This document shows positions 1 to 29,920 of a stretch of DNA of 64,000 bases, piece by piece. Source of the stretch: Candidatus Gastranaerophilales bacterium (GTDB taxonomy: Bacteria; Cyanobacteriota; Vampirovibrionia; Gastranaerophilales; Gastranaerophilaceae); the NCBI GenBank assembly GCA_944325155.1, contig CALUYY010000001.1, positions 62,001 through 126,000 of the forward strand, in the 5' to 3' direction. The first letter of the stretch is position 1, and each line of letters begins with the position of its first letter. The position numbers and the translations under genes are program-made. The notes beneath the pieces are model-generated. The model was given only the letters and a program-made list of their open reading frames with translations. It searched no databases and was not told where the DNA came from.

Positions 1-1018
1 CACCTAATTGCTGGTCGACATAACCGGGGTCAAAAACGCCGTCGGCAACATATTTACCGGATGTATAATTTGTTGTACCCGCCCAAACATACGGCGAAGG
101 AAGCCCTTTATTTTTATACCCGAGACCGTTATATCTTTCCGCAAAATCATACCAAGTGTTGATATTATTTAAATCAATGTTTCCGTAGCCGCCGGACAGC
201 GCATCAACAGCAGAAGCTTCCCAGCTTGAATACCCTGACAGTGAGCCGCCGTCATGCAATCTTCTGTTAAAATTACCGCTTGCTTCTCTCCAGTGAATTG
301 CGGCAATAAGTTCGGCGGGAACTCCGGTTTGTGAAGCAACGGATTGATACCTGCTTTTATTTTGTGCCCAGTGACTTTTAAACATTTGAAGCTCGCTTTG
401 TTGTCTTGAAGATAATTTTTCGGAGAAATTATATGAAAAGTTTCCGTAATTTGTGCTGCCGTTTGAAGCGGATAAATTCATAACCTGTCCCGTGCCGTTT
501 GCCGCATTTTGATTTGCCGCTCTTTGTGCGGCTGCAAGCTCTTGCTGTTTTATTCTTGTAATCTGCATTTCCATATTAGTCATTAACGACAATACCTGTC
601 CTCTGAGGTTTGATATTTGATTGTTTACATTTTGTATGTTTGATGTTACCTGTTCAGCTTCGGACGCGTCTTCGACTTTAGAATAATCCGACAACAAAAG
701 ATGTCTTTGTTCTTCAAGATTTTCTATTTGTTTTTCCAAGACCTGAATTTGTTTCCAATATTCTTCTTCAACTTCTTCAACGGTCTTTGTGCCTGATGTT
801 GCAGTGTTGGCTGTCGTTTGGGCAGTGTTATTTGTATTTGAATTTGTGTCGTCAATATCTTCAATAAACGTCTGCAGTTCGTTTTCGGTTATTGTTTTAT
901 CATTGTTTTTATCAAGCATTTTTAAATATTGTTCATTTGTAATGCCCGCTTCTTTCAGGGCATTATACATATTTTTGCCTTCTATTTTATAGTTTCCTAT
1001 TTTAAAATTTTCGCCCAT
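1..1018 (-). CDS. Lysozyme-like protein with EF-hand-like N-terminus (3' end cut by window)
   Basis: Open from an ATG at 1018 to the window edge (339 codons, no stop seen). An AAAGGAA ribosome site lies 7 nt upstream. The N-terminal head (IGNYKI..., then LKMLDKNNDKTITENEL, about residues 7-55) contains an EF-hand-like loop and closely matches the head of the next gene upstream, which ends 15 nt before this start. A coiled-coil stretch follows. The C-terminal 110 residues resemble phage-type lysozyme-family proteins: HWREASGNF (likely catalytic E245), RLHDGG, ERYNGLGY and KYVADGVFDPGY. The expected activity is peptidoglycan cleavage. No signal peptide is visible, so the export route is unknown. 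Only a few residues should be missing at the C-terminus. Confidence 0.85.
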   Translation of the reverse strand, partial: MGENFKIGNYKIEGKNMYNALKEAGITNEQYLKMLDKNNDKTITENELQTFIEDIDDTNSNTNNTAQTTANTATSGTKTVEEVEEEYWKQIQVLEKQIENLEEQRHLLLSDYSKVEDASEAEQVTSNIQNVNNQISNLRGQVLSLMTNMEMQITRIKQQELAAAQRAANQNAANGTGQVMNLSASNGSTNYGNFSYNFSEKLSSRQQSELQMFKSHWAQNKSRYQSVASQTGVPAELIAAIHWREASGNFNRRLHDGGSLSGYSSWEASAVDALSGGYGNIDLNNINTWYDFAERYNGLGYKNKGLPSPYVWAGTTNYTSGKYVADGVFDPGYVDQQLG

Positions 1019-1033
1019 AATTTGTTCCTTTAG

Positions 1034-1975
1034 TTATGCAAAAAGGTTTGTATTTGCATTTATGTTGGCACCCGTTAATTGATTATATATACTCGTAACG
1101 GATGGAACCCACCCGGAATTTGTGCCGTTAGGGTCATTTGCCGCACCTACGGGGCAGTATTTAGCACCGATTGAACTTATTGTCGTTAACCCCTGATTAA
1201 TATAATTATTTTTCAAATTCTTTGCAACGGCTCTTATTCCTTCTTCAAGGCTGGAATAATGCGTCAAAGACATCCAGTTGCTGGAAGGATCCATCATGCC
1301 GCCCGGATTATTATAGTTTTTAATTGCACTTGATGTTCCCCATCCGGTTTCAAGCGCCATAATAGAAGCAAGCAAATTGGGATCAAGTCCGTTTTCTTCG
1401 GCAATTGAAGCAACCATGGCGCCTTGTCCCGCCAGAACACCTTTATTAAATGATGAGTTATTAAAGTTATTTACAAAATCGGCGCTGTTACCCGAATATG
1501 TATAATTTCCGCCGGATTGTGAAACGGCTGCGCCTGTACCGGATATACCCTGCATAGCTGCAGATTCTGCCTGCATATATGTATTTAAGATTTGCCCCCT
1601 TACATTTGAAATCTGGTTTTGAAGGTTATCGGACTGCTGCTTATATTTATTAAAAGTATCTTCATCCTGTGCCGTTCCCATCCGGTTATTTATCTGATGT
1701 TTTTGATTCATCAGGTTATCCATTTGCTGATAAAGCATAATTAAAATATCGTCATAATCGCTTTGCACCGAATTTGTTGAATTTGAAGATGAGGATGAAT
1801 TTTCTTTTTCATCATCATCAGACAGTGCTACTTCAACAAGTTCATCTTCCGATATTATCATATCGCCGTTTTTATCAAGCTTTTTTAAATCTTTTTCATC
1901 TTTTATATTAGCCTGATTTAAAACGTTATATGCTTCAGAGGTTTTAATTGAATAGTTTCCGATTTTTTCCGTCAT
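1034..1975 (-). CDS. EF-hand, coiled-coil, glucosaminidase-domain protein
   Basis: 313 aa. The N-terminus carries IGNYSIK and a canonical 12-residue EF-hand loop (DKNGDMIISEDE, about residues 34-45), then a Ser/Asp-rich linker and a short coiled coil. From about residue 185 there is a glucosaminidase (LytG/FlgJ-type) domain: ASIMALETGWGTSSAI with the likely catalytic Glu, then YNNPGGMM. It ends with a tail (IGAKYCPVGAANDP) shared with the C-terminus of the 2110-3972 protein. The expected role is cleavage of peptidoglycan glycan strands. There is no signal peptide or lipobox. It has an AAGGA-type ribosome site and is followed 15 nt later by the lysozyme-like gene, so the two are probably cotranscribed. 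Confidence 0.88.
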   Translation of the reverse strand: MTEKIGNYSIKTSEAYNVLNQANIKDEKDLKKLDKNGDMIISEDELVEVALSDDDEKENSSSSSNSTNSVQSDYDDILIMLYQQMDNLMNQKHQINNRMGTAQDEDTFNKYKQQSDNLQNQISNVRGQILNTYMQAESAAMQGISGTGAAVSQSGGNYTYSGNSADFVNNFNNSSFNKGVLAGQGAMVASIAEENGLDPNLLASIMALETGWGTSSAIKNYNNPGGMMDPSSNWMSLTHYSSLEEGIRAVAKNLKNNYINQGLTTISSIGAKYCPVGAANDPNGTNSGWVPSVTSIYNQLTGANINANTNLFA

Positions 1976-2109: not shown

Positions 2110-3972
2110 CTAGCATAATGCGGTATTTGCATCAATATTCTTTCCGGTTAAATCATTGTAAATGCTTACAATTGCAGGAATCCAATTTCCGTTAAGACCG
2201 GTAGGATCGTTTGCCGCACCGACAGGGCAGTATTTTGCACCGATTTGCGAAACGGTTGTCAGATTGTTGCCTTCCTGATGAACATAATTGTTGGAAAGAT
2301 TTCTTATAACGGCTTCAATGCCTTCATCGAGACTGTTATACGTTATAAGACCGCTGCTGCTCATCATGCCGCCGGGGTTATTTTTATTTAAAATTGCGGA
2401 GCTTGTACCGTAGCCGGTTTCATGCGCCATAATTGCGGTAACAAGGTACGGGTCAATATCGTATTCTTTGCATAATCCTTCAATTAAGTCGGCTTTATCC
2501 GCAAGCGCACCGTTTGCCAATTCGCTGTTTTCAAATGCTGCTGCAAGTTCGCCCAGGTTTTCGGCTTCGCCCGCTTTTTGACCTCTTTGAGCTTTTAGTT
2601 CTTCAAGCTCTTGTCTTTGCGAGTCAAGCGTTTCTTGTGCTGTTGTATTATCTTCTTCGTATTGTGTCTTTATATTTTCAATTTCATCTTTGGTTTCTTT
2701 TATTATTTTTTTCAGGGGCGAATTTTCATCAAGGCTTTCTTCAATCTTTGTCAGAATATCATCTTTTGCCTGTTCTTGTTCGCTTTCGGTATTTTTAAGA
2801 TCTGAAATTTCGCCGTCTAATGTTTCAATTTCAGCTTCAAGTTCCGCTTTTTTTGCTTCAAGGTCTGCTTTTTTTGCTTCAAGGTCTGCTTTAATTGCCT
2901 GGTTTTCTGCGTCTTTTTCCTCGTTGCCCGAATTTGTATCTATGGCAGAAATTTGTGCGTCAAGTTCTGAAATTTGGGATGTGGTTGATGATAATTGGCT
3001 TTCCGTATCAGCTTTTTCGTTTTCTTTTTCCGTTATACTTTCTTGCGTTTTTTGAAGGTCTTCATCAGCTTTTTTATATTCGTCTTTTAATTCCTGGTCG
3101 ATTTCATCTGATTCTTCAATTGCTTCTCTTTGTTTTTGTTCTTGTTCTTCAATGTCAGAATCTTTTGCTTCTCTTAAAGACTGTATATTTTCTTCAGATT
3201 CGGGTATTTTTACCGTTTCAAGTTCTTCTATTTTTGCATCCAAGTCAGCAACTTCTTGCTCTGCCTGACTTGCGGCTTCTTGTACCGCTTGTTGTGCAGC
3301 GTTATAGGAGCCTCCGCCGGATGAACTTCCGATCGAACCACCGCCTCCGCCTCCGGAGTAGCCGCCGGTTGAACCGCCTCCGCCTGTTGATTGAACCGGT
3401 GCTTGTTGAACGGGTGTTTGTGCTTCATTGCCTAAAAAATAGTCTTTCAGCTTTTGAACAATATCTTGCATGTTGTTTTCATCTATTTTTGGATCTTCTT
3501 CATCAATTGAATCAATATTATTATTTACGTAATTTTTAATTTCGCCGGGAGTTAAATCGGATAAAGTTTCGGCCGATGAACTGATTTTTTCAATGTCTTC
3601 CCTGCCGAGTTTCCCGTCTTTGTCGGAATCAAGAAGGTCAAAAACTTTGTCATATCCGATTTTATCTATAAATTTATTTAATGAATCATTTGTTTCAACA
3701 ATACTTTTGAATTCCTGAATTGATTCTTCCCTTATTTCTTTAACTTCAGGGTTAATTTCACTTTCTTCATTTTCGTTTTCTTCGTTTATTTCATCGAAAA
3801 ATTCTTCGGTATCAATATTTTGCAATTCATCTTCATTAATAGAATATAATCTGTTATATGAAGCATCGGATGCCGATTTAACGGTACTTGAATCCGTATT
3901 TACGATAGCTGTGTCTTCGGTGCCGTTTACATATAAATCGTTAATCCGGTTAATTAATGAAGTTCTTTCCAT
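2110..3972 (-). CDS. EF-hand, coiled-coil, Gly-rich linker, glucosaminidase protein
   Basis: 620 aa from ATG 3972. An upstream TTG at 3984 would extend the frame by four codons but overlaps the GAGGAA ribosome site, so 3972 is preferred. Order of parts: acidic head with the motif SYNRLYSINEDEL (about residues 39-51); EF-hand-like loop DSDKDGKLGRED (115-126); Gly/Ser-rich linker (about 195-225); long Glu/Lys/Gln coiled coil (about 230-480); C-terminal glucosaminidase-like domain with IMAHETGYGTSSAI, NKNNPGGMM and IGAKYCPVGAANDP. The last domain is a clear paralog of the one in 1034-1975. Expected activity is peptidoglycan glycan-strand hydrolysis, with the coiled coil acting as spacer or oligomeriser. 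There is no signal peptide. It is divergent from the 4155 gene across a 182-bp intergenic region. Confidence 0.88.
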   Translation of the reverse strand: MERTSLINRINDLYVNGTEDTAIVNTDSSTVKSASDASYNRLYSINEDELQNIDTEEFFDEINEENENEESEINPEVKEIREESIQEFKSIVETNDSLNKFIDKIGYDKVFDLLDSDKDGKLGREDIEKISSSAETLSDLTPGEIKNYVNNNIDSIDEEDPKIDENNMQDIVQKLKDYFLGNEAQTPVQQAPVQSTGGGGSTGGYSGGGGGGSIGSSSGGGSYNAAQQAVQEAASQAEQEVADLDAKIEELETVKIPESEENIQSLREAKDSDIEEQEQKQREAIEESDEIDQELKDEYKKADEDLQKTQESITEKENEKADTESQLSSTTSQISELDAQISAIDTNSGNEEKDAENQAIKADLEAKKADLEAKKAELEAEIETLDGEISDLKNTESEQEQAKDDILTKIEESLDENSPLKKIIKETKDEIENIKTQYEEDNTTAQETLDSQRQELEELKAQRGQKAGEAENLGELAAAFENSELANGALADKADLIEGLCKEYDIDPYLVTAIMAHETGYGTSSAILNKNNPGGMMSSSGLITYNSLDEGIEAVIRNLSNNYVHQEGNNLTTVSQIGAKYCPVGAANDPTGLNGNWIPAIVSIYNDLTGKNIDANTALC

Positions 3973-4154: not shown

Positions 4155-7100
4155 ATGGCAAACTACGAATTAAAAGTTGACGGAAAAACATATTACTTCG
4201 TAAATGAAGCGGAATATAACGAGGTTAAAGACGCAGGGAGCACCGAAGAGCAAAAAGAATTAATAGCACAATACGGCAAAACAAAAGTTTCAACCAATGA
4301 AGACGATTTGGTTGAAATTGACGAAACGGGCGAAACCGAAGGAACAGATGGAAGCGAAGAAAGCAGCAACAATTCGGGAGAGCTTAATGGCTTTGAAATT
4401 GAAGAATATGAAGCCTTTATGCAAACGGTCGGATATAACAATTTGACGGAAGACAGCAGTGTTGATGATATGGTTGCGGTTTTTGACAAAATAGAAGCCG
4501 AAATTGAAAAACTTGATTTAAAGGTAAGATCGCTTGACTCAGATGACCCAAACGAAATTAATGATGTCTTAATGGATTTGTCTACCGTAAATGTCGCAAT
4601 GGGGAAATTTATGGAATCAATCGGATTTGAAAGCTCTTATGGTGTTGGCAAACATATTCTCGGAGTAGGGGGATGTGCAGCAGCCGGCGCAGCAATAGGA
4701 AGCTTTATTCCGGGTGTAGGCACGGCAATAGGCGCAGGTGTCGGCGCCATTGTCGGACTTGTTGGCGGTTTTATAAATTTAGGAATAAATGCAGGTGAAG
4801 AAAATAAATTCAATAAATTAAAAGAAGACTGTGAAGCACAGGCAAACAATCTTTCACAAATGACGCAGGATGCAACAACGAAATTTACGGAAATTGTTGA
4901 AAAAGAGCTTGTGCCGGATGTCGAAAAAGAGCTTGAAGGATTGCTTGACGGTGAATTTAAATTTGATGATATTAACGATACAAGAAATATAACGGAAAAC
5001 CTGGATAATATAATTAAATGTCAGCAAAAAATTGAACCTTATTTTACAATAGCGGAAAATTTCGGAATATCATGCCCTGCGCTTGAAGAATTGGCGGAAA
5101 AATTGGGCACGGGCGACGATGCACTCCAATATGCACAGGATTATGTCGATTCTTACGCAGATGCGGTTGATATTTCCTTAACCGATGATGTTGTTGAAGA
5201 TACGGGCAAATTAAATGAAATCTATTCTTCCGTATCAAGCATAATAACGGAAGCCCAATCAAGAGGACTAAAAACGGATAAACTTGAAAAATTATTAAAA
5301 ACAACAACCGAAACAAACCAGGAAGCGGCAGATAACGAAGCAAACGATATAACAAACGGCGCAGGCTCGGGATCCGGCACAAGCGGGCTTCAACCTTATA
5401 CTATTACACAGCCTTCAAGCGGAGGCGGTATCTCAACGGGCGGAGGCTCATCGGGACTTAGCGGAGGCTCAACGGGCGGAAGCCAGGGAGCAAACACAAG
5501 CGTTGTTGAAGGCACGGAAAGCGCAATAGAAGGCTCAAATACGGCAGAAGAAACATCACAAGGCGTTGAATCAAATTCAAGTTCTTATGAAACATCAACG
5601 GATAAACTTGATGAAGCGTCAAAAGATTTAAAAGAATCTGCTCAGGCACAGGTGGATGCATACCTTGAAAGCATTAAAGCAAGCGGCTCCATAACCGAAC
5701 TTGAAAGCATGTATAATCAGGTAAGCGCAACTTATGAAGAATTGAAAGGCTTATCCGGTGAAGTTGACCTGTCGGGATTTGAAACAAAATTAAATGAAAT
5801 AAGAAGCGCACAGCAAAAAATTGTTGATGAATATACAAGTCAGGTTTCAGGCGCAATTAATTCATCATCTTCATCATCCGAAAGAAAAGAGCTCTTAGCG
5901 GGGATTGAAGCAACAATGAGTCAATATGCCGAAATTAACGTTGATTTTTCGGGGCTTAGTGCTCTTGTATCGCAAATAAAAGATAAAGAACAACAATATA
6001 TAGACGAGCAAACCCAAGCGGCAAATAATACTATTCAAAATGCGGCAACAAAAGAAGAAATAACAAACGTTATAAATAATATAACGGTTATAATAAATGA
6101 ATCAAACGGACTCGGCGCCGATGTCAGCGGGTTAACGGCAGCCGTTGAACAACTAAATGCAAAACTTGAAGAAATAATTGCAAAAGAAACGGCACCCGAA
6201 GGCACGGGTGAAACCGAAGACGGCAAAGGTGCAGGCGGTGCGGATTTTGAAACAAGAATTCAAAATATTTTAACTGCAATAAATGGTGCAAAATCATTGG
6301 AATCATTATCGGCGCTTAAAGGCGAAGTTGATCTGTTAATGAATGAAGCGGTAGCAAATTCATATCCGACCGAAGAAATTGAAAACTTATATTTAATGTT
6401 ACAGACAAAAGGAAATGAATTATCGGGCGAAGTTGCAACAGACGGCGAAGAAACGGTAAATAAAACAACAAATGTTGAAATTTTAAATAATGTTGCAATA
6501 AACGTAAATAATAATATAGTACATGTAATTAACATTAACGCAGATACCAAAAGACTTGAAGACCTGCTTCAAAAAATCTACGATAAAATAAGCGAGCTTG
6601 CTATAAATCCTCCCGAAGAAAAACCGGATGAAGACGACACAAGCGTTGAAGAACCTAAAGAAGAGTGTCCGCCTGAAGATGAGCTTCCGGTTGAAGATAA
6701 CCCGAATGATGACCCGAATTCATCAGGTATAATCGACCCGACTTTAGGCATAGAAGGGGCGCCTGAAGATAATGACAATATAGAAGACAGCGAAACACAA
6801 ACCCCTGCAACAGAACCGGATAACAACGATAAAAATGACAACAAACCGGAAGAAACAATTCCTGAAGGCGAAACAACGCCATCAAATGATAATGTAACCG
6901 AAGATAAACCGAAAGAAGATAACACAAAAGTTGAAGAACCTAAAGAAGACGAAACAGCGGTTGAACCCCCAAAAGAAGACAATACGGCTGCAACACCTCC
7001 CGTAAATGAAGATAACGAAACCTATAGGCCTTCAGAAAACAATACAACCGATTCATCCGTAACAGAAGATGATACAACACCTGAAACACCCCAAACACCG

Positions 7101-7313
7101 GTGTCGGATAATGAAAATGATGATACTGCAACAGAAGATGATATGCCGTGCGAAACGGAAGACAATCTTCCCGAAACAGACATGGGCGGCTCAAGCGTAA
7201 GTGTAAATGAATCGAATGAAAGCGAAACACAAGCCGATACAAATCAAACAAATGTCTATGAAGGTGAAGACGGGCATGATATAGAACTTGATTTTGAAGA
7301 AGATGAAAAATAA
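4155..7313 (+). CDS. Giant acidic protein: head module, glycine zipper, coiled coils, Pro/Glu tail
   Basis: 1052 aa from ATG 4155, chosen because GGAAGGTG lies 8 nt upstream; a GTG at 4128 is upstream of that site. The N-terminal head (YELKVDGKTYYF, then EY.EVK and NEDDLVEIDET) matches the head of the CHAP protein at 13036. Residues about 163-215 are a glycine-zipper or membrane-active stretch (AAAGAAIG, GVGTAIGAGVGAIVG). Coiled coil follows, then a Gly/Ser linker (about 402-446), more helical coil with NxxS-rich repeats, and a very acidic Pro/Glu/Thr/Asp tail (about 816-1052). No catalytic domain is recognised. The structure suggests a secreted scaffold, adhesin or pore-forming partner of the neighbouring hydrolases. 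It is followed 14 nt later by the 7328 gene, so the two likely form an operon. Confidence 0.85.
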   Translation: MANYELKVDGKTYYFVNEAEYNEVKDAGSTEEQKELIAQYGKTKVSTNEDDLVEIDETGETEGTDGSEESSNNSGELNGFEIEEYEAFMQTVGYNNLTEDSSVDDMVAVFDKIEAEIEKLDLKVRSLDSDDPNEINDVLMDLSTVNVAMGKFMESIGFESSYGVGKHILGVGGCAAAGAAIGSFIPGVGTAIGAGVGAIVGLVGGFINLGINAGEENKFNKLKEDCEAQANNLSQMTQDATTKFTEIVEKELVPDVEKELEGLLDGEFKFDDINDTRNITENLDNIIKCQQKIEPYFTIAENFGISCPALEELAEKLGTGDDALQYAQDYVDSYADAVDISLTDDVVEDTGKLNEIYSSVSSIITEAQSRGLKTDKLEKLLKTTTETNQEAADNEANDITNGAGSGSGTSGLQPYTITQPSSGGGISTGGGSSGLSGGSTGGSQGANTSVVEGTESAIEGSNTAEETSQGVESNSSSYETSTDKLDEASKDLKESAQAQVDAYLESIKASGSITELESMYNQVSATYEELKGLSGEVDLSGFETKLNEIRSAQQKIVDEYTSQVSGAINSSSSSSERKELLAGIEATMSQYAEINVDFSGLSALVSQIKDKEQQYIDEQTQAANNTIQNAATKEEITNVINNITVIINESNGLGADVSGLTAAVEQLNAKLEEIIAKETAPEGTGETEDGKGAGGADFETRIQNILTAINGAKSLESLSALKGEVDLLMNEAVANSYPTEEIENLYLMLQTKGNELSGEVATDGEETVNKTTNVEILNNVAINVNNNIVHVININADTKRLEDLLQKIYDKISELAINPPEEKPDEDDTSVEEPKEECPPEDELPVEDNPNDDPNSSGIIDPTLGIEGAPEDNDNIEDSETQTPATEPDNNDKNDNKPEETIPEGETTPSNDNVTEDKPKEDNTKVEEPKEDETAVEPPKEDNTAATPPVNEDNETYRPSENNTTDSSVTEDDTTPETPQTPVSDNENDDTATEDDMPCETEDNLPETDMGGSSVSVNESNESETQADTNQTNVYEGEDGHDIELDFEEDEK

Positions 7314-7327
7314 TGAAGGAGTAAAAG

Positions 7328-8689
7328 ATGACAATTGACCCCATCAGAAAACTGATTTTAGGAAACACGGACGCACTTGAATCCGACAGTAAAGTTCAAG
7401 ACACAAAAACAACGGCAAATCAGTCGGGATACAACAGAATACAAAGCTATGAAGATGAATTAATTGAACTTGATGAAACAAGCTTTGGAACTTTTGATTC
7501 CGAAAATGCCGATACGGATGAAATTGAAGCAGAAATAAAATCCAAAGAAGAAGAAATAAAGCAGCTTGAACAAGATACCGAACAATATATAGAAGATTGC
7601 ACCAATGAAATTGAAAAAATTATATCCGAAGGAACAGATGTTATTCCCGATGAAGTTCAGGAGCAATTTAGCGAAATATCGGATGAAATTTCAAAAGCGA
7701 TAAAAGGAAACACAGGTTCGATTCAGGAATTATCTTCAACAATTTCCGAAAATGAACTTGCAATTTCAAGAGCAAATGATGAAATAAAAGAAAAAGAAAA
7801 AGAAATTAAAGAAAAAGAAGATAAAATAAAATCTTTGGAAAAAAAGAATGATCCCGAATCCAAAGAAGAAATCGAATCTCTTAAAGGTGAAATTCAAGGT
7901 CTGAATTCCGAAATTTCAAAATTAAACGACATTATCTCAAATGCAAATAAAGTAATTGAAACAGCAAACGGAGAAATTGAAGAATATACAAAACTGAATG
8001 AAACCGAAGCCGAAAGACAAAAAGGCTTAATGAATGAGCTTTTAAATGAATATAACAAATCACACACACAGGAAGAAAGGGTTATGCAGGACCCTGAATC
8101 CAAAAGAAACATTGAAGGGCTTGAAGAGTGCATTTCAAATGCCAACATGAATTTATCCGAAAACACCCTTAATTTAACAAATGAAATTAATAATTTAAGG
8201 GTTGAACTTGCAAAAAAATATCTAGAAGAATTAAAAGCAAAAGAGGCGGCTGCAACCACCCAAACATCAGGCACAAGCTATTCAATTCTGGGCGGAAATT
8301 ATACGGGCGATCTTCCCGTTAATTCAAGTCTGGCTTCAATTGCGGAAAGCACGGCAAATTCAATGGGCTCGACCGGCTGGTGTTTAAAGGGCGTAAATAA
8401 TGCTCTTGAAGCGGCATACGGTTTCAGATTAAGTTACAATAGCGCCTATCAGGCAATTCCCGCACTGCAATCAAGAAGCGATTTTACGGAAGTTACAAAC
8501 GAATTTCCGACCGCACAAAGCTTAACAAATCTTCCCGCAGGCGCAATAGTAGTCTGGGAAAACGGCAACGGACACCCGCACGGGCACATATCAATTGCTC
8601 TGGGCGACGGCAGAGAAGCATCCGATCACATACAATCGCAAACCGTAAACTACGGAACACAATATCACGTATTTATAAAAAATAACTAA
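7328..8689 (+). CDS. Coiled-coil protein with CHAP/NlpC-like cysteine peptidase domain
   Basis: 453 aa, preceded by a GAAGGAG ribosome site 6 nt before ATG. The acidic head carries GYNRIQSYEDELIELDET, the same pattern as the 2110-3972 protein. A dense Lys/Glu coiled coil spans about residues 60-305. The C-terminal 130 residues look like a papain-fold amidase/peptidase of the CHAP or NlpC/P60 group: TGWCLKGVN with C352 as the likely nucleophile, and HPHGHISIAL with H420 as the likely general base. Expected substrate is the peptidoglycan stem peptide or cross-bridge. There is no signal peptide. The stop codon overlaps the convergent antiporter stop by 3 bp. Confidence 0.83.
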   Translation: MTIDPIRKLILGNTDALESDSKVQDTKTTANQSGYNRIQSYEDELIELDETSFGTFDSENADTDEIEAEIKSKEEEIKQLEQDTEQYIEDCTNEIEKIISEGTDVIPDEVQEQFSEISDEISKAIKGNTGSIQELSSTISENELAISRANDEIKEKEKEIKEKEDKIKSLEKKNDPESKEEIESLKGEIQGLNSEISKLNDIISNANKVIETANGEIEEYTKLNETEAERQKGLMNELLNEYNKSHTQEERVMQDPESKRNIEGLEECISNANMNLSENTLNLTNEINNLRVELAKKYLEELKAKEAAATTQTSGTSYSILGGNYTGDLPVNSSLASIAESTANSMGSTGWCLKGVNNALEAAYGFRLSYNSAYQAIPALQSRSDFTEVTNEFPTAQSLTNLPAGAIVVWENGNGHPHGHISIALGDGREASDHIQSQTVNYGTQYHVFIKNN

Positions 8690-10278
8690 ATATTATAAAA
8701 AACAATTATATCGCCGGTAACAATTTTTGTATCCCCGTTGGGAACAAAAGAGTTGCCGGCTCTTTTAATTAAAGCAATTAAAAAACCTTCCTGAAAATCA
8801 ATTTCTTTTATCAATTTATTTTTCCACTGGTGATTTTTTGTAATTTCCATTTCTTTTAATTTGATATCTGAAGTTGAATGGGTAACGGTTGTTCCGATTA
8901 AAACAAGATCATTTTCAAGAATTTTAATATCGCCCTTGGGAACAATTTTACATCCCTGCCTTTGAATTACAAGAATTAAAGACTTGTTATCAAGTTTTAT
9001 ATCTTTTAATTTCTTATCACGCCAGGGGTGGCTGTTTGTAACCAAAGTTTTTGATAAAGTTATTGCCGACTCGTTTTGATAGTCGTTAAAAGTTTTTAAG
9101 ACATCGGAATATTCATCTATCATATCAAGCTTTTGAGCAAACCAGGGTAATAATGAACCTTGAAATGCAACCGATATAAAAGATACAAAAAATACAATAT
9201 GAAATAAATCAAACTTTAAATCGGCGCTTTCGGCAACCGCAAAAATCGCAAATACGATTGAAGCCGCCCCTCTTAAGCCGGCCAATGAAACAAAGGCGAT
9301 TTGGTTTAATTTTGCCCTGAACGGAAGCATTATGAGAGAAATAGCAATCGGTCTTGCAATAAAAGATAAAAATAAAACAATTAAAATCGAAGGAACAAAA
9401 ATTTCATAAATTCTTGAAGGGGTTGATAAAAATCCGAGAAGGAAAAATATAATAATCTGTGATAGCTGGGTTATTCCGTCAAAAAAGTAAATAAGGTTGA
9501 TTTTATTTTTAATTTCGCTGTTTCCTAAAATTATCCCCGTTATATAGACGCTTAAAAATCCGTTTCCGCCGATTAAATCAGGAATTGCATAAGAAGCAAG
9601 AGCAAGGGCAACGACAAATAAAGTGTCCGTTCCCTCCTGAATTAAGTCAGTCTTTTTATAAATTAAAATTCCCGCTTTTGCGATTAAAATACCGGATATT
9701 ATTCCGTATCCGATTTGTGCAATAAACATGGGAAAAACGGATTCAACTCCGGCGCCTTTTAAAAGAATAAGGCCTAAAACCGTCAGCATATATGCAAAAG
9801 GATCGTTTGACCCGGATTCAATTTCAAGCAAAGATGCCGTATTATATTTTAAATTTAATTTTTTTGACCTTAATATTGAAAATACGCTTGCCGCATCGGT
9901 TGAAGATAAAATGGCGCCGATTAAAAAACTCTCTTGAAAATTAATTTTTAAAAAATAGTAACAAAAAGCCGTTGTTAACAGTGCGGTAAAAACCGTTCCC
10001 AAAGAAGACAAAAGAGCGGATTGAAAATTTAAAACTTTATCTTTTATATTCCTGGTGCAAAAACCCCCGTAGAAAATTATAAATAATAAGGCAACGGTGC
10101 AAAGTTTGGCGGTGAGATCATAATTATTGTATGAAATTTTTAAAATACCGTCTTCGCCGAATAAAATTCCCAAAAGCATAAATAAAAGCAAAGCGGGCAT
10201 TCCCAGCTTGCTTGAAAATTTATTTGTTATAAGGCAGAAAAATATGACAACTGCACAAAATAAAATTAAAACGGACAT
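8686..10278 (-). CDS. K+/H+ antiporter, CvrA/NhaP2 family, with TrkA-C domains
   Basis: 530 aa. About twelve hydrophobic segments fill the first 390 residues with CPA1-type signatures: GAILSSTDAASVF and SGSNDPFAY in the exchanger core, and LAGLRGAASIVFA near the end. Two C-terminal modules of about 70 residues each (from about 400 and 470) resemble RCK_C/TrkA-C ligand-binding domains, typical of the NhaP2/CvrA branch. It should exchange K+ (or Na+) for H+ across the inner membrane. The ATG at 10278 has AAGGAG upstream. It converges with the 7328 gene and is divergent from the carbonic anhydrase gene with a 93-bp gap. Confidence 0.9.
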   Translation of the reverse strand: MSVLILFCAVVIFFCLITNKFSSKLGMPALLLFMLLGILFGEDGILKISYNNYDLTAKLCTVALLFIIFYGGFCTRNIKDKVLNFQSALLSSLGTVFTALLTTAFCYYFLKINFQESFLIGAILSSTDAASVFSILRSKKLNLKYNTASLLEIESGSNDPFAYMLTVLGLILLKGAGVESVFPMFIAQIGYGIISGILIAKAGILIYKKTDLIQEGTDTLFVVALALASYAIPDLIGGNGFLSVYITGIILGNSEIKNKINLIYFFDGITQLSQIIIFFLLGFLSTPSRIYEIFVPSILIVLFLSFIARPIAISLIMLPFRAKLNQIAFVSLAGLRGAASIVFAIFAVAESADLKFDLFHIVFFVSFISVAFQGSLLPWFAQKLDMIDEYSDVLKTFNDYQNESAITLSKTLVTNSHPWRDKKLKDIKLDNKSLILVIQRQGCKIVPKGDIKILENDLVLIGTTVTHSTSDIKLKEMEITKNHQWKNKLIKEIDFQEGFLIALIKRAGNSFVPNGDTKIVTGDIIVFYNI

Positions 10279-10336
10279 TTTAAACTCCTTATATTTAATA
10301 TATCAAAGAGAATAAAAAATTAAAATCGTTTTTGGT

Positions 10337-10365
10337 TTGGCAATAAATAAAAACTAAACTATAAT
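10337..10365 (+). promoter_or_regulatory. Sigma70-type promoter of the carbonic anhydrase gene, probably leaderless
   Basis: TTGGCA (10337-10342), a 17-nt spacer and TATAAT (10360-10365). The ATG begins at 10372, only 6 nt after the -10 box, and no Shine-Dalgarno fits in between. Transcription would start at or next to the start codon. Confidence 0.7.
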
Positions 10366-10371
10366 AAAGAA

Positions 10372-10956
10372 ATGGAAAATAATTTAGAACTCGGAAAAAA
10401 AGAATTAAACAAACTTCTTTTTGGAAACAAAAATTTTGTGCAAGGTACGCCCAATGCAAAAAATATGTGCCTTGAAACATTAAAAAAGTTTGCATTTCAT
10501 CAGGAACCCTATGCCGCCGTTTTAAGCTGCTCCGATTCAAGAGTCGTTCCCGAAATTATTTTTGACTGCGGAATAGGTGAATTATTTGTTATAAGAGTTG
10601 CAGGCATTGCTCTCGGTCCGAATGTTACGGAAAGCATAGAATATGCCGTTAAAAAACTAAAAGTTCCGCTTTTAATATTGCTCGGACACGATGATTGCGG
10701 AGTTATGAAATATGCAAAAGAACATTACCCCGTTATGACGGATGACTTTAAATCGATAATGAGCGCCGTGTATCCTGTTTTGGATAAAAAAGAAGACATT
10801 AAATGTCATAACTTTTTTGCAATGGAGCACACAAAATGGGTTGAAAAAACTTTAATTGAAAAATCAAAAATTGTAAAAACGGCTGTCGACAATAAAGAAT
10901 TATTAATTGCAAAGTGCCACTTTGACCATTCAACGGGGCTTGTGAATTTAATATAG
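10372..10956 (+). CDS. can: Beta-class carbonic anhydrase
   Basis: 194 aa, typical of a compact beta-class enzyme. It interconverts CO2 and bicarbonate in the cytoplasm. The zinc and active-site residues are all present: CSDSR (C53, D55, R57) and GHDDCG (H106, C109). The start lies 6 nt after a consensus -10 box without a Shine-Dalgarno, so the message is probably leaderless. CreD starts 9 nt downstream and is likely cotranscribed. Confidence 0.93.
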   Translation: MENNLELGKKELNKLLFGNKNFVQGTPNAKNMCLETLKKFAFHQEPYAAVLSCSDSRVVPEIIFDCGIGELFVIRVAGIALGPNVTESIEYAVKKLKVPLLILLGHDDCGVMKYAKEHYPVMTDDFKSIMSAVYPVLDKKEDIKCHNFFAMEHTKWVEKTLIEKSKIVKTAVDNKELLIAKCHFDHSTGLVNLI

Positions 10957-10965
10957 GGATAATTT

Positions 10966-12153
10966 ATGGAAGATAAAAAGAAAAGTTCAAAGGTTAAAAA
11001 ATTCTACATTCTTTTAATCATGCTTATTATTCTTCTCATACCGATAGCATACCTTAATTCAATCGTAAACAACAGACAAGACTATAAAAATGAAGCCGTT
11101 AACTTTATTCAAAAATCCTGGGGCGGCATGCAAAGAATAAATGCGCCTGCGATTTATTATTCAATCCAAAATAAAGACCAAACTGAAAATAAATATCTTG
11201 AATTAAACAACTATAATGTAAATGTTAAGCTTGACACACAATACAGGAAAAAAGGAATTTTTAAAATACCTGTCTATACGGCAAATGTTAATCTTAGCGG
11301 TGATTTTACGAATAATTTAAATTTAAAAAACAAAGAACTGACATTTGAATTCACTATATCAGATTCAAAAGGCTTTACCGAACAGCCGAAAGTAAAAATT
11401 TTATCGGACAATTTTAAAACTGCACCAAAAAATAAATTCAACATCAAAATACATAACCAAAAATCAATTCCTTTTGAAATTCAATATAAAATAAGGGGAA
11501 CAAATAAAATATTTGCGGAACCGAAAGGAATGGAAAACAAAATTTCAATTGAAGGCAACTGGGCAGATCCGTCTTTTGAAGGAGATTTTCTGCCTGTTGA
11601 GAAAAAAATAACAAAAGAAAATTTTAGAGCCGAATGGAAAATCCCTTTTATTGCAACATCATCCGTAATGAACCCCGAAGCCGGCGTTTCACTCCTTGTT
11701 CCCGTTGATAATTATAAAATGTCCGTAAGAACGACTAAATACGCATTTCTGTTTTTATCATTAATGTTTTTATCATTTTTTATATTTGAAATCAGCTCAT
11801 CAAATAAAAAACCCGTCCATCAGCTTCAATATTTAATTATGGGCGGAGCGGGGCTTGTATATTATCTTTTATTGGTTTCGATGTCTGAATTTATGCCGTT
11901 TTTAGTTTCTTATATAATCGCCTGTCTTATGACAACGGGTTTAATCGGGTTATACACCTATTTTGTAATAGTTAAAAAAGAAGATATAAAGTTTCCGCTT
12001 ATAATATCTGTTATTTTGGCTCTTTTGTATATATTTTTATACGTACTTCTCGCACTTACCGACTATTCGCTTCTTACAGGTTCAATCGGTCTTTTTATAA
12101 TAACTGCGATTGTTATGTATACAACAAGAAAAATTGAATGGTACAATGATTAA
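10966..12153 (+). CDS. creD: CreD-family inner membrane protein
   Basis: 395 aa. An N-terminal transmembrane segment (about residues 12-32) is followed by SWGGMQRINAPAIYY, matching the CreD signature after the first membrane span. A periplasmic beta-rich region comes next, then about five or six C-terminal transmembrane helices (about 255-385). The role of CreD is poorly defined; it is linked to envelope integrity. A GGGA ribosome site precedes the ATG. The gene follows the carbonic anhydrase gene closely. No CreBC-type two-component system is adjacent. It overlaps the convergent gene at 12150 by 4 bp. Confidence 0.87.
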   Translation: MEDKKKSSKVKKFYILLIMLIILLIPIAYLNSIVNNRQDYKNEAVNFIQKSWGGMQRINAPAIYYSIQNKDQTENKYLELNNYNVNVKLDTQYRKKGIFKIPVYTANVNLSGDFTNNLNLKNKELTFEFTISDSKGFTEQPKVKILSDNFKTAPKNKFNIKIHNQKSIPFEIQYKIRGTNKIFAEPKGMENKISIEGNWADPSFEGDFLPVEKKITKENFRAEWKIPFIATSSVMNPEAGVSLLVPVDNYKMSVRTTKYAFLFLSLMFLSFFIFEISSSNKKPVHQLQYLIMGGAGLVYYLLLVSMSEFMPFLVSYIIACLMTTGLIGLYTYFVIVKKEDIKFPLIISVILALLYIFLYVLLALTDYSLLTGSIGLFIITAIVMYTTRKIEWYND

Positions 12154-12911
12154 TTTTCATACACCAAAGAACCTCTGAAAAGGTCTGCCTCTTTAAAATT
12201 AATCTGCCTCATTTTAACGTCAATATATCCGCCCAGCCTGTCAAGATCGTATGAGCCTATAATAATTGCCGAATTTCTGCCCAGTTTTTTATTAATTAAT
12301 TTAAAAAGCTCTGAAATTTCATTAATCGATAAATACGGTATCATATTTCTGCACAATAAAACCGTATTTGGCGTTTTATTATCCATTTTTGAAAGTTTTG
12401 ATAAAATATCGCCGCATGAAAAATTAACCTTATTTCTTAAAACAGGTGCAACAAAATAAGGAATGCTTCCTTCCTCGCTTCTTTTATAAACGGATTCATA
12501 AGAAGGTTTCATATAATCATCAATATCCAAATTATAATAATCAAATTTATCAACATCGGAAGGGCTTAAAGAAATAATTCCATTATTTGCGTCATCAATC
12601 AACAATTTGCTGCAATCAAATGCTTCAATCGGAAAAAATTTTTTACCGCCGGGTATTTTTTTATCTAAAATCATTGCAAGGCTGTACGGCTCGCTGCCGT
12701 CAGAACATGCGGCATTTAGCACATTAACTTTTTGAGCATTTTTATATTTATTTTCAAGATAATAAGATAATAAATTCCAATCCAAATCGCTTCTGAACAT
12801 TCTTGTATAACAGCAGGCATATTTTCTCCTGCCGTCAATTGTAGAGCGAAGATAATTAACGTTATTTGCACAAAATGAAAGATTATAATTTTTAACGGGT
12901 GAAATATTCAT
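12150..12911 (-). CDS. CheR-like SAM-dependent methyltransferase, orphan, copy 1
   Basis: 253 aa. The SAM-binding motif VLNAACSDGSEPYSLAM corresponds to the CheR signature (A-C-S-x-G-x-E-P-Y-S), and LLCRNMIPYL matches CheR's CRNxxIYF segment. The short N-terminal CheR helical domain is replaced by MNISPVKNYNLSFCANN, a lineage-type FxA/FxG head. No chemotaxis genes are nearby, so the substrate may not be a chemoreceptor. It is a close paralog of the 13930-14691 protein, which has the same length. The upstream region is AT-rich with no clear Shine-Dalgarno. Confidence 0.8.
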   Translation of the reverse strand: MNISPVKNYNLSFCANNVNYLRSTIDGRRKYACCYTRMFRSDLDWNLLSYYLENKYKNAQKVNVLNAACSDGSEPYSLAMILDKKIPGGKKFFPIEAFDCSKLLIDDANNGIISLSPSDVDKFDYYNLDIDDYMKPSYESVYKRSEEGSIPYFVAPVLRNKVNFSCGDILSKLSKMDNKTPNTVLLCRNMIPYLSINEISELFKLINKKLGRNSAIIIGSYDLDRLGGYIDVKMRQINFKEADLFRGSLVYEN

Positions 12912-13035
12912 ATGTGAATAAAACGCAAAAAAAATTTATTTATCTAAAAAATTAAGAATTATTAAATTTATTATAAAAAAACATAAATTTTTAAAATTAA
13001 TTACCGATAAAAATAAAGGAAAGGAAAATAAGGAA

Positions 13036-13908
13036 ATGAGCTTTGAACTTACCATATCAGGTAAAGTATATGTTTTTGATACGCAAAAAGAATATCAAAA
13101 AGTAAAAGAAATGACGCCCAAAGAACAAAAGGCGTACATTTCAAAAACGGTAAATGAAGATGAATTGCAGGAAACAAATTTTGAAGAAGAAACGGAAGAA
13201 AATGAAAATTTAAATGAAGAGCCGATAATCAACTCAAATATAGCGGCAATAGATGAACAAATTATAAGTCTTGAAGAAACAAGAACAAAGCTCTATAATT
13301 CACTTGCAGGGGCACTTGAAGAAGAATACACGGAAAAAATATTAAATGAAATTTCAAATATACAAAATCAAATTACAAGTTTAAGAAGCGAAGCTATAAA
13401 TTATCTTACCTCAAATACAATGCCGCAAAGCGCAAACGACACGTCGCAAATATCAGGCATGACAGCAAATGACGGAGGCGGCATAGTAAGTTTTGCCGAA
13501 AAATTCTTAGGCGAAAAAAACCCGAGCAGAAGTGCGGGTAAAAACCCGTTTGTAAGAGTTGAAAGAGGCGGAAGCTGCGATGACTTTGCAACATATATAA
13601 TAGATAATTCGCTTAGTGAAGACATGAGAGCCGACTGGTACAATAAACTCTCGGAAAATGAGAAAGCCTGGGGGCCCGATGTTTTCAGAGCTGCAAAGGA
13701 AGCGGGTGCCACGGTCAAATTAAGCGAAGCAAAAGCGGGTGATCTTTGTGCGATTGATTTGAACGGAAACGGCGGAATGGATCACACGGTAATTATCAAA
13801 GAAGTTAAAAACGGAAAAGTCTATGTTATAGAATCAAACGGCGGAACAGTACAAAATAAAACGTATAATGAAAGTCAGGTCTGCTCAATCGCAAGAACAA
13901 CAAAATAA
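13036..13908 (+). CDS. CHAP/NlpC-like amidase with conserved N-terminal head
   Basis: 290 aa. ATG 13036 has GGAAAATAAGGAA just upstream. The head (FELTISGKVYVF, EYQKVKE, VNEDELQE; residues 3-50) aligns with the head of the giant protein at 4155. A short coiled coil spans about residues 70-125. The C-terminal domain (from about 150) has GSCDDFATYI with C181 as the likely nucleophile, GDLCAIDLNGNGGMDHTVII with H250 as the likely base, and VIESNGG, as in CHAP/NlpC-type peptidoglycan amidases. There is no signal peptide. It sits between the two CheR-like paralogs. Confidence 0.83.
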   Translation: MSFELTISGKVYVFDTQKEYQKVKEMTPKEQKAYISKTVNEDELQETNFEEETEENENLNEEPIINSNIAAIDEQIISLEETRTKLYNSLAGALEEEYTEKILNEISNIQNQITSLRSEAINYLTSNTMPQSANDTSQISGMTANDGGGIVSFAEKFLGEKNPSRSAGKNPFVRVERGGSCDDFATYIIDNSLSEDMRADWYNKLSENEKAWGPDVFRAAKEAGATVKLSEAKAGDLCAIDLNGNGGMDHTVIIKEVKNGKVYVIESNGGTVQNKTYNESQVCSIARTTK

Positions 13909-14691: not shown

Positions 14692-14755
14692 TTTATAAGT
14701 CCGTATTTTAATTACACATAAATAAAACATGTAAAAATTATTTTTAAACAAAATA

Positions 14756-18196: not shown

Positions 18197-20110
18197 TTAT
18201 TTTTTATCGACAATATTCACATAAGTAATATTTTGGTTAACCGGATTTGAAAGGTCATATTCGTTAACTTTTACACAATTGCCTGAATTTCCTTCAATAG
18301 TATACATCATATCGCCTTCAATTGCATAAACGATTCCTATATGCTGCATTGTGCCGTCGCCGTCATAGTCAAAAAGAACAATATCACCGGGCTGCGCCTG
18401 ATTTGATTCAATCAGTTCATTTTCTTTTTCTGCGGCTCTGTGGACATTAACCTGCCAGTACTGGTTTTCAATTTCTTCATACCAATCGGGAATATCCAAA
18501 TCCGTATTATTTGCAACCTGTTCCATTACATAAGAAACAAAAGCCGCACACCATCCGGTTTGACGAGATGAACTGTGCCATTTATATAAGAACTTATCCG
18601 CACTGGCATCAGCTTCATTATCTCCCAAATACTTAAGCGCTTCTTGAACAATTGCCTTTGAGAGTAGATTTGGCGAATATTCAATATTATCGTTTCTGTT
18701 TTTATTATCTGTAATTGTTTTTTCAATTTCGCTTACTTCTTTTTCGGAAGCGTCAATTTGCGCTTTAATATTTTCGGCAGTATTTTCTTTATAAGTATTT
18801 AAATTTTCTTTCGCATTATTATACCCGTTCATTGCTTCAGCTATATTGGGTCCGATTGTCTGCAGAATTTCCGCTTCAATTTGATCTTTTTCGCTATTCA
18901 AAGCTGCAAGGTCGGATTCATATGTTTCTTTTGTTGCTTCCATTTTTTCAAGCACACGTTTTGAATATTCAAGCGTTTTTTTGGTTTCTTCTTCTTTTGC
19001 TTTTGCGGTATTAAGAGCTGATGTAACAGATGCAATTTGAGCTTCTATTGCCGCTTGTTCATCAGGATCATCCGAACTAGCACCTTGAAGCGCACTTAGT
19101 GCGGATTCAAGATTTTCTCTTGTTGATTTTGCACTGTTATAAGCGTTTTCATTTTGTTGAATTTTAGCTTCCTGATTTGAAATTTTGATTTCCTGGGCAT
19201 CAATCTGCGCTTCTTTTGCGTCAATTTGCGATATCTTTTCCTGCAATCTTGTTTTGTCAACTTTTTCTTCATCAAGTCTGCGCATATATAATTCATACGC
19301 CGCTTGAACGTTTTGTTCCCTTGTTTTTACTCCTGAATCCGAACCGTCATAGACAGAATTTAATCTTTCTCGCTGTTCGTCCGCTTTTTCCTGTTTTTCA
19401 GCTTTTATTTCAAGAAGTTCTTCTTCCGTTTTCCCTGCCAGACTTGTCTGCCCTGAAACCCATATGGCTTCATCCGTATCATCTCCGCTGCCCGAACCGC
19501 CGGAAGCACCGGAAGCACCCGTATTTGCATTTATATTTTGGGTAGCGGTCTGTTGAATGTTTCCTGCCTGTTCAGCTTGAATTTCAGACAAATTATCCAA
19601 AATTTGATTTGCAACGTCTAAAGTCGTATTTCCCGCATCCAGCTGGTCTTTAATATATTCACCGTTTTTGACACTGTTTACACCGTCATAAATATCTTTA
19701 TACGAAACATTTTCAGCATTATTATCATTTAAACTTATGTATTCCATAAACTCTTTAATTTCGTCATTATCAAGTTTAGAGTCGCCGTTTAAATCAATTG
19801 TTTTAACAAAATCATTGTCCCTTAAAAGGTCAAACAAATATTCCGTAACAAATCCGTTGTTGTTGCTTTGATTTGTATTGACAGCATTAATATTTGCAAT
19901 AAGCGCCCTGTCCAAGATTTCAGATAATGACCCCTCAATTGAATCAACGTCGATATTTAATTCGTTTTCAAGATAATCTTTAAGTTCATCGTTGTAATCA
20001 AAAAGGTTAACACCCCCTTGAGCATTATCGTTATTTATTTGCTCCTTCCCGTACAGGTTTTCAAGATATGCTTGAAATCCCGCCTTAACGTCCGAAAAAT
20101 TAGTATGCAT
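18197..20110 (-). CDS. EF-hand, coiled-coil, CHAP-domain protein
   Basis: 637 aa, with an AAGGAG ribosome site. Residues about 110-125 contain the EF-hand-like loop DLNGDSKLDNDE. Residues about 230-480 are a long coiled coil rich in Gln/Glu/Lys (repeats of IDAKEAQIDAQE type). The C-terminal CHAP domain (from about 490) has TGWCAAFVSYV with C521 as nucleophile, PGDIVLFDYDGDG, MQHIGIVYAI with H590, and YTIEGNSG. This is a good match to CHAP amidases/endopeptidases that cut peptidoglycan. There is no signal peptide. The N-terminal head (NLFDYNDELKDYL) loosely resembles the NEDEL motif of the other family members. Confidence 0.87.
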   Translation of the reverse strand: MHTNFSDVKAGFQAYLENLYGKEQINNDNAQGGVNLFDYNDELKDYLENELNIDVDSIEGSLSEILDRALIANINAVNTNQSNNNGFVTEYLFDLLRDNDFVKTIDLNGDSKLDNDEIKEFMEYISLNDNNAENVSYKDIYDGVNSVKNGEYIKDQLDAGNTTLDVANQILDNLSEIQAEQAGNIQQTATQNINANTGASGASGGSGSGDDTDEAIWVSGQTSLAGKTEEELLEIKAEKQEKADEQRERLNSVYDGSDSGVKTREQNVQAAYELYMRRLDEEKVDKTRLQEKISQIDAKEAQIDAQEIKISNQEAKIQQNENAYNSAKSTRENLESALSALQGASSDDPDEQAAIEAQIASVTSALNTAKAKEEETKKTLEYSKRVLEKMEATKETYESDLAALNSEKDQIEAEILQTIGPNIAEAMNGYNNAKENLNTYKENTAENIKAQIDASEKEVSEIEKTITDNKNRNDNIEYSPNLLSKAIVQEALKYLGDNEADASADKFLYKWHSSSRQTGWCAAFVSYVMEQVANNTDLDIPDWYEEIENQYWQVNVHRAAEKENELIESNQAQPGDIVLFDYDGDGTMQHIGIVYAIEGDMMYTIEGNSGNCVKVNEYDLSNPVNQNITYVNIVDKK

Positions 20111-27875: not shown

Positions 27876-28316
27876 TTAAAAAAAATTAATAAAATCAACA
27901 ATCTCTTTAAAATCTTCATTTGTAAGTTTTAAATAAGGTCTTGCAGGTATAGTTACAAATTGGTTTTTACCGGTTTGACCTCCAAGTTGATGAATTGCTG
28001 CATAATCAAGATTTGAGCCAATAACAGCAGAATCATTGTCATAATAAGTACTTATAGATGATGCTAGTTGTCCACTTACTTGTAAAATTTGCCCCGGCCA
28101 ATGTCCTTTTTTCTTTCTTTGCCTTTTAGTAGGTTCAGCTAAATCTATCCACATATCAGGTCTACCCTCTTTTTTAAAGTTTTCTTCAGTAGAATACGCA
28201 AAAACACCTGCGATGTTTTTCATTAATGGTCGCAGGTTTTCGCTTCGTTTTGCCAAATCAAGTAATCTTGACTCAACCTCTTTATTATCAAGTTTTATTT
28301 CAATTGGTTCGCTCAT
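27876..28316 (-). CDS. Phage Mu gpG-like virion morphogenesis protein
   Basis: 146 aa from ATG 28316; an upstream in-frame start at 28349 adds a hydrophobic stretch not typical of the family. The pattern matches gpG/tail-completion proteins: RPDMWIDLAEPTKRQRKK, GQILQVSGQLASSI, VIGSNLDYAAIHQLGG and IPARPYLKL near the end. In Mu this protein helps tail assembly. Here it stands alone with no other head or tail genes, which points to a degenerate Mu-like prophage origin. It converges on the GH13-like cargo gene with a 15-bp gap. Confidence 0.8.
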   Translation of the reverse strand: MSEPIEIKLDNKEVESRLLDLAKRSENLRPLMKNIAGVFAYSTEENFKKEGRPDMWIDLAEPTKRQRKKKGHWPGQILQVSGQLASSISTYYDNDSAVIGSNLDYAAIHQLGGQTGKNQFVTIPARPYLKLTNEDFKEIVDFINFF

Positions 28317-28402
28317 TTTTAAATATTTTTTTAATAGGATAATTAGCAATCAAAAGAAATACAAAAACTTGATATGGATTGAAAATACATAAAAATTAAG
28401 CT

Positions 28403-29899: not shown

Positions 29900-29920
29900 A
29901 ATTTAATCTCCTTCTTGGTT

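What the first reader, a model, noticed from the sequence alone, without database searches (positions are those of the whole stretch)
4155..13190. Shared N-terminal head module in proteins with unrelated C-termini
Seen: the 4155 protein (YELKVDGKTYYF, EY.EVK, NEDDLVEIDET) and the 13036 protein (FELTISGKVYVF, EYQKVKE, NEDELQE) align over about 50 residues, although one is a 1052-aa non-enzyme and the other a CHAP protein. The 2110 and 7328 proteins share a second head (SYNRLYS.NEDEL / GYNRIQSYEDELIELDE). The 1 and 1034 proteins share a third (IGNY.I ... LDKN.D). A NEDEL/EDELxExD element recurs in most. Inference: the heads may be targeting or secretion signals recognised by a common machine.
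Basis: partly seen in the sequence, partly recalled or inferred. Interest (0 to 1): 0.65.

Follow-up and report, generated by a model that had tools for sequence, protein, structure and literature searches.

The report
Shared N-terminal heads on signal-less wall-cutting enzymes
A gut relative of cyanobacteria makes about a dozen proteins, mostly cell-wall-cutting enzymes, that lack the usual export signal but share interchangeable start modules with one acidic motif about 45 residues in; this looks like an address tag, probably for a flagellum-type export machine that the bacterium keeps although it has no flagellin.

Summary
Heads "1" (4155, 13036) and "3" (1, 1034) are one homologous module (profile-profile E=8e-7): an EF-hand-derived domain, intact in head 3 and degenerate in head 1. 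Head "2" (2110, 7328) differs: a short helix plus a polar linker. Both end in the same acidic element, E-D-x-[L/Y]-x-E, at residues 40-69. The strict pattern occurs in 23 of 28 cluster proteins and orthologs, against 7 of 190 neighbouring genes. Orthologs keep the head, one relative has swapped it onto a different passenger, and it lies far from the hydrolase domains. None of the proteins has a signal peptide.

The genome has no flagellin but encodes a flagellar-type type III export apparatus (FlhA, FliI, FliH, FliF, FliE, FliJ, FliK, rod protein) that is near-universal in the family. A second, flagellar FlhA occurs in exactly the 32 of 78 genomes with flagellin. Two further motif-bearing hydrolases lie directly downstream of fliJ-fliK-rod, although this linkage is not conserved across the genus.

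Best reading: N-terminal address modules for export of peptidoglycan hydrolases by this type III apparatus (confidence about 0.5). Export is inferred, not shown. Organism: Gastranaerophilales, near Ca. Galligastranaerophilus.

The parts
2..1018 (-). EF-head protein, lysozyme/SLT-like C-terminus by eye (open at window edge); head = residues 1-60 (839-1018)
   Evidence: EF-hand profile hit weak in Pfam; head alignment A4; genus orthologs L043/L044 end in SLT-like sequence
1034..1975 (-). EF-head glucosaminidase; head 1796-1975, acidic motif about 1832-1849
   Evidence: Glucosaminidase PF01832 residues 188-300 E=1.4e-11; head z=16 to ORF 2-1018
2110..3972 (-). Helix+linker head (3793-3972) with motif INEDELQNID (about 3817-3834), EF-hand at residues ~108-130, coiled coil, glucosaminidase
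4155..7313 (+). 1052-aa protein: degenerate-EF head (4155-4346) with motif NEDDLVEIDE (about 4296-4325), glycine-rich hydrophobic segment at residues ~175-220, helical repeats, acidic tail
   Evidence: no Pfam or PDB sequence match
7328..8689 (+). Helix+linker head with motif YEDELIELDE (about 7448-7477), coiled coil, CHAP-like C-terminus
   Evidence: CHAP E=0.033, below cut-off; orthologs in G081/G082 keep LEDELVEL
13036..13908 (+). Degenerate-EF head (13036-13215) with motif NEDELQE (about 13153-13173), CHAP
   Evidence: CHAP E=2e-7 residues 179-268; ortholog L004 in another genus keeps the head (E=1.3e-8)
18197..20110 (-). Family-wide type: N-terminal helix, linker, VNLF motif at residue ~36, EF-hand, coiled coil, CHAP; lacks the EDEL motif
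   Evidence: CHAP E=4.6e-9; [ILVA]F motif in 17 of 17 such proteins

Best explanation
The heads are N-terminal address modules of a set of proteins, mostly peptidoglycan hydrolases, that leave the cytoplasm without a Sec or Tat signal peptide. There are two interchangeable forms. One is an EF-hand-derived domain (intact, or with a decayed loop). The other is a short amphipathic helix followed by a Ser/Thr/Asn-rich linker. Both present the same acidic element (consensus E-D-x-[L/Y]-x-E-x-D) about 45 residues from the N-terminus. The most likely machine is the flagellar-type type III export apparatus that this flagellin-less organism and nearly all of its family keep. The N-terminal stretch would engage the export gate or the cytoplasmic FlhA-type domain, the protein would travel unfolded, and the EF-hand and hydrolase would fold outside, perhaps on meeting calcium. 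Shown: homology and conservation of the heads, fixed motif position, absence of signal peptides, a head swap, presence of the apparatus, absence of flagellin. Inferred: recognition by the apparatus, export, calcium-dependent folding, and the target wall (own or foreign).
For: Heads 1 and 3 are one module (E=8.2e-7). The motif occurs in 23 of 28 cluster proteins against 7 of 190 neighbours. A profile of non-EF motifs then recovers EF heads and a new CHAP protein genome-wide. Hydropathy of the first 40 residues is at most 0.62, against 2.2-2.9 for Sec controls of the same genome. All five CHAP matches of the genome are in head or EF proteins. Head swap: L223 carries the EF head on the passenger that has the helix-linker head in the own genome. 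The EF head also occurs on an unrelated repeat protein (L196). Apparatus: FlhA 2.6e-214, FliH, FliF, FliE and an SLT without signal peptide in one operon, FliI, FliJ, FliK and FlgE/F/G protein. It is not a flagellum: no flagellin in this genome. In 78 family genomes a second, stronger FlhA occurs in exactly the 32 with flagellin, while the divergent FlhA is in about 70 and the rod protein in 76. Linkage: on contig C7, fliJ-fliK-rod-(signal-peptide gene)-CHAP-SLT lie on one strand with gaps of 12-89 bases, the last two with the motif at residues 43-48. Published gut genomes of this group are reported to lack a type I system (PMC3787301).
Against: The C7 linkage is not general. In G061 one such protein lies nearby on the opposite strand; in G081, G083 and G078 the orthologous pair lies elsewhere; other genera show no hydrolase homolog directly beside the rod operon. 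No export was measured. Type IV, VI and VII systems were not searched for. The strict flagellar gate-recognition pattern (F-x-x-x-hydrophobic) is not enriched in the family-wide set (12 of 17, p=0.09). The EF head is restricted to the genus, whereas the apparatus is family-wide. EF-hands also have ordinary calcium roles.
Confidence: 0.5

Rival explanations
1. The heads act after export, not for it: a calcium-binding or protein-docking domain (dockerin-like in role) that anchors the hydrolases to a surface partner or regulates them, with the acidic element as the docking site. Export would use some other route.
For: Head 3 is a true EF-hand. EF-hands occur again downstream of helix-linker heads. 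Acidic motifs are common docking sites (general knowledge).
Against: The motif stands at a fixed distance from the N-terminus also in heads without any EF-hand. Proteins with a downstream EF-hand still keep the N-terminal motif. It does not explain how signal-less hydrolases leave the cell.
Confidence: 0.25
2. Common descent without a shared function: the proteins are paralogs from local duplication, and similarity of the heads is residual homology plus acidic composition.
For: Many of the genes lie within 57 kb of one contig. Heads 1 and 3 are homologous. The motif pattern was defined on part of the set.
Against: Composition-preserving shuffles do not reproduce it. Catalytic domains differ (CHAP, glucosaminidase, SLT, none). 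The head is swapped between passengers. Two dissimilar head forms keep the same motif at the same position, also in orthologs with otherwise very divergent heads.
Confidence: 0.15
3. Prophage-type lysins or cytoplasmic autolysins released by lysis; the heads are incidental.
For: Catalytic parts resemble phage endolysins and tail lysozymes (PHROGs hits). A Mu-like remnant lies at window 27876-32080.
Against: PHROGs matches in the hydrolases are to catalytic or coiled-coil parts, not to heads. No phage record encodes a relative of 13036. Genes are single-copy, conserved in the genus and not in prophage context.
Confidence: 0.07

Closest known systems
EF-hand domains (PF13405, PF00036, PF13202); calsensin in the PDB
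   Same: Head 3 has the EF loop D-x-N-x-D-x-x-I-x-x-E; profile hit to calsensin E=2.9e-8
   Different: Single loop at the extreme N-terminus preceded by an IGNY-type strand; degenerate in 4155/13036; used as a swappable head on hydrolases
Flagellar type III export substrates with dual N-terminal signals (rod/hook subunits; PMC8983047)
   Same: No signal peptide; N-terminal information in two elements, with a second motif at least 30 residues in (Salmonella FlgD: residues 36-40; here [ILVA]F at 28-41 or EDxLxE at 40-69)
   Different: Motif sequence differs; the strict F-x-x-x-hydrophobic pattern is not enriched; passengers are hydrolases, not axial subunits; export not shown
FlgJ and the lytic transglycosylase encoded in the export operon here (L017:1922-2581)
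   Same: Signal-less peptidoglycan hydrolase associated with a flagellar-type export apparatus (FlgJ from general knowledge)
   Different: One enzyme per apparatus for rod passage; here about a dozen enzymes with other catalytic domains and heads
Dockerin domains of cellulosomes
   Same: EF-hand-derived modules attached to unrelated enzymes
   Different: Dockerins have a duplicated calcium loop, need Sec export and bind cohesins; here one loop and no signal peptide
LXG/WXG heads of type VII toxins
   Same: Shared N-terminal head on proteins with differing C-termini (general knowledge)
   Different: Heads here are about 60 residues, not the helical LXG domain; type VII genes not examined

Membership tests
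EF-hand domain | 12-residue calcium loop D-x-[DN]-x-[DN] with acidic last position | tested here: met
   Head 3: invariant D34, D38, E43, E45 across 12 sequences; PDB profile hit 2.9e-8; Pfam E=0.004-0.05 in window copies, below cut-off
EF-hand domain | Same loop intact in head 1 (4155, 13036) | tested here: not met
   Loop acids are lost although the profiles align end to end; degenerate, so not filed as calcium-binding
Type III export substrate | No Sec/Tat signal peptide | tested here: met
   Hydropathy of first 40 residues at most 0.62 against 2.2-2.9 for controls
Type III export substrate | Export depends on the apparatus | not testable with these tools
   Needs secretome or mutant data
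[quoted passage not shown]
   12 of 17 family-wide proteins, shuffle mean 9.0, p=0.09; a different motif [SND][ILVA]F is at residues 28-41 in nearly all, 16 of 17 against 23 of 234 background
Flagellar-type export apparatus | FlhA, FliI, FliH, FliF, FliE, FliJ, rod/hook protein | tested here: met
Bacterial flagellum | Flagellin filament | tested here: not met
   No PF00669 match in the own genome; flagellin tracks the second FlhA 32/32
Non-flagellar injectisome | Secretin and absence of flagellar-specific parts | tested here: inconclusive
   Flagellar-specific parts FliE and FlgE/F/G are present, so it is not a classical injectisome; secretin not searched
Type VII (LXG/WXG100) substrates | WXG100/LXG head and EssC-type ATPase | not tested
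   No LXG or WXG hit among head proteins in Pfam; ATPase not searched

The most novel reading that the evidence does not exclude
Gut Gastranaerophilaceae keep a family-wide, flagellin-independent flagellar-type export machine whose job is to deliver a panel of peptidoglycan hydrolases, addressed by exchangeable N-terminal heads (EF-hand-derived or helix-linker) through a common motif 30-60 residues in, perhaps read by the family's free-standing FlhA C-terminal-domain protein (own C8:23966-25417). It would be a bacterial wall-targeting or self-remodelling use of type III export in the phylum of cyanobacteria.
Probability: 0.3. Interest if true: 0.82.

Novelty: new variant of a known kind. Interest (0 to 1): 0.56.

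Why it matters
If right, it explains why gut relatives of cyanobacteria without flagellin retain a flagellar export machine. That has been read as an incomplete flagellum or genome reduction (PMC3787301; discussed in PMC5877343). It would also give a sequence tag for finding further cargo and make type III delivery of peptidoglycan hydrolases, so far mainly a matter of single flagellar lysins, directly testable. Even if export uses another route, the heads define a new lineage-specific family of exchangeable N-terminal modules on signal-less hydrolases.

Tried and rejected
1) Heads 1, 2 and 3 as three independent modules: rejected, because heads 1 and 3 are homologous. 2) Heads as part of the hydrolase fold: rejected by domain positions. 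3) Chance or acidic composition: rejected by shuffles and by comparison with 142 real proteins. 4) Phage lysins: unlikely. 5) Ancestral operon of type III genes with head proteins: not supported beyond the own genome and, weakly, G061. 6) Flagellar gate-recognition motif: pattern not enriched. 10) Literature searches for type III secretion in this group found no description of such a system in the open library; subscription papers are not covered.
Full report
Setting. The window is C1:62001-126000 of a 1.88-Mb, 98%-complete genome. Its FlhA is 97% identical to that of Candidatus Galligastranaerophilus intestinigallinarum, and the next best named matches are Candidatus Gastranaerophilales. It is therefore a gut member of the non-photosynthetic sister group of cyanobacteria.

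Observation. Pairwise scores of the first 75 residues, compared with 1000 composition-preserving shuffles and with 142 other proteins of the same genome, confirm each pairing: 1/1034 z=16, 4155/13036 z=9.6, 2110/7328 z=5.9. They also show links between the supposed types: 4155 to L013:15022 z=6.1, and 4155 to 1034 z=5.4. With orthologs added, the profile of head 1 aligns to the profile of head 3 from residue 1 to the end of the motif with E=8.2e-7 and probability 92%. The same comparison without orthologs was only suggestive. Head 3 is an EF-hand. In head 1 the calcium loop has decayed while the start and the exit motif remain. A genome-wide profile search finds exactly four intact EF heads, two in the window and two just upstream.

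The acidic element. Orthologs from other species of the genus have very different heads but keep the element: DEDEYQEM, VEDDLAETD, LEDELVELNE, SEDSYQEVD. A strict pattern is found in 23 of 28 cluster proteins and orthologs at residues 40-69. It is found in 7 of 190 neighbouring genes and in 2.8 on average in shuffles. The pattern was chosen after seeing part of the set, so the more telling test is. A profile built only from non-EF instances was run over nine whole genomes of the genus. In the own genome its non-training hits were three EF heads, a further CHAP protein on contig C7, and one conserved 97-residue protein that ends in the element.

Modularity. The head lies at residues 1-60; catalytic domains start after residue 140 in the short proteins and after 480 in the long ones. 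In G079 the passenger of the U3651 type (L013:3651-5684) carries an EF head in place of the helix-linker head (L223). In G080 the EF head sits on a repeat protein that is not a hydrolase (L196). The EF head is confined to the genus; head 1 with its CHAP passenger is found once outside it (L004). More broadly in the family, long EF-hand/coiled-coil/CHAP proteins share a different N-terminal signature: an amphipathic helix, a polar linker and a [ILVA]F motif at residues 28-41. It is present in 17 of 17 such proteins; the tighter form [SND][ILVA]F is in 16 of 17 against 23 of 234 other genes. These 17 are homologous to one another, so this is conservation and not independent origin.

No signal peptide. 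The first 40 residues of all head proteins are hydrophilic (maximum 15-residue hydropathy 0.62), whereas Sec proteins of the same genome score 2.2-2.9. The 4155 protein has one glycine-rich hydrophobic stretch at about residues 175-220 that could insert in a membrane. All five CHAP matches of the genome are in head or EF proteins.

A machine. The genome encodes FlhA; SLT, FliE, FliF and FliH in one operon with FlhA; FliI; and FliJ, FliK and a FlgE/F/G-type rod protein. It has no flagellin. Across 78 genomes of the family, a divergent FlhA like this one is present in about 70 and the rod protein in 76. A second, stronger FlhA occurs in 32 genomes, which are exactly the 32 with flagellin (lists compared by eye). 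So the apparatus of this genome is not a decayed flagellum of one species but a separate, family-wide one. Earlier work on gut members read missing filament genes as genome reduction and noted no type I system (PMC3787301).

Linkage of heads and machine. On contig C7 the genes fliJ, fliK, rod gene and a signal-peptide gene are followed on the same strand, with gaps of 65, 89 and 12 bases, by a CHAP protein and an SLT-type protein. Both carry EF-hand and coiled coil, and the acidic element at residues 48 and 43. In G061 one such protein lies close by on the other strand. In three other species of the genus the pair lies elsewhere, and in other genera no hydrolase homolog lies directly beside the rod operon; one EF-hand SLT lies about 6 kb away in G032 (L237). 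In a Caenarcanales genome a signal-less 748-residue multi-EF-hand protein lies 1.2 kb from flhA (L089). A set of coiled-coil genes between the hydrolase genes on C1 (L012:5041-6628) has its homologs about 4 kb upstream of the fliE-flhA operon in L088. Each item is suggestive; none proves that the heads serve this apparatus.

Judgement. That the heads are functional N-terminal modules and not chance is well supported. That they are address tags is likely (about 0.65). That the machine is the flagellar-type apparatus is the best single candidate (about 0.5), by analogy with early flagellar substrates whose two N-terminal signals must stand at least about 20-30 residues apart (PMC8983047) and because it is the one non-Sec exporter found here. 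Systems other than type III were not searched.

Noticed in passing
G000 contigs C3, C7, C8 (L016, L017, L222, L018); 78 family genomes: Flagellin presence and a second FlhA coincide in 32 of 32 genomes, while a divergent FlhA and its rod protein are near-universal: a family-wide flagellin-independent export apparatus.
   Followed up: partly
L018:13966-15417 (G000 C8): A ~490-residue protein consisting of a FlhA C-terminal domain without the membrane part is conserved in most genomes of the family; a possible soluble receptor.
   Followed up: no
L220:11654-11947; L217, L197, L218: Conserved 97-residue protein ending in FTSDDELQELDMQEFEDDFR-like sequence, the same acidic element at its C-terminus, beside a NarL-type response regulator.
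   Followed up: partly
window 27876-32080 (-): Mu-like remnant: transposase, transposition ATPase and neck/tail-completion gene (PHROGs 310, 296, 26), apparently truncated.
   Followed up: partly
window 12150-12911, 13930-14751, 16055, 20729, 62367: Many proteins of this lineage start with a short tag like LSFCANNV, PSFSANRV, NFTGGINL, CFTGIKT, VAFTGQKK; a second recurrent N-terminal tag, not studied.
   Followed up: no
L184:4372-5339, L185:12674-13606, L186:12913-13248, L188:5330-5602: Small proteins with a hydrophobic segment and C-terminal TTQG/THQG next to the long EF/CHAP genes in relatives.
   Followed up: no
L054, L055, L060-L064, L066, L072: In other genera CHAP proteins without signal peptide begin with Phe/Ser/Asn/Pro-rich low-complexity N-termini instead of EF/coiled-coil.
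   Followed up: no
L012:2377-6628 (G000 C1:44377-48628): Cluster of coiled-coil genes (two start GMAASQARFLSLTARKSNVEYEGQQ) lying between the hydrolase genes; homologs of three of them lie upstream of the export operon in L088.
   Followed up: partly
window 4155-7313, residues ~175-220: Glycine-zipper-like hydrophobic stretch in the otherwise hydrophilic 1052-residue protein, as in pore-forming or translocator proteins; its acidic C-terminal tail is conserved in orthologs.
   Followed up: no
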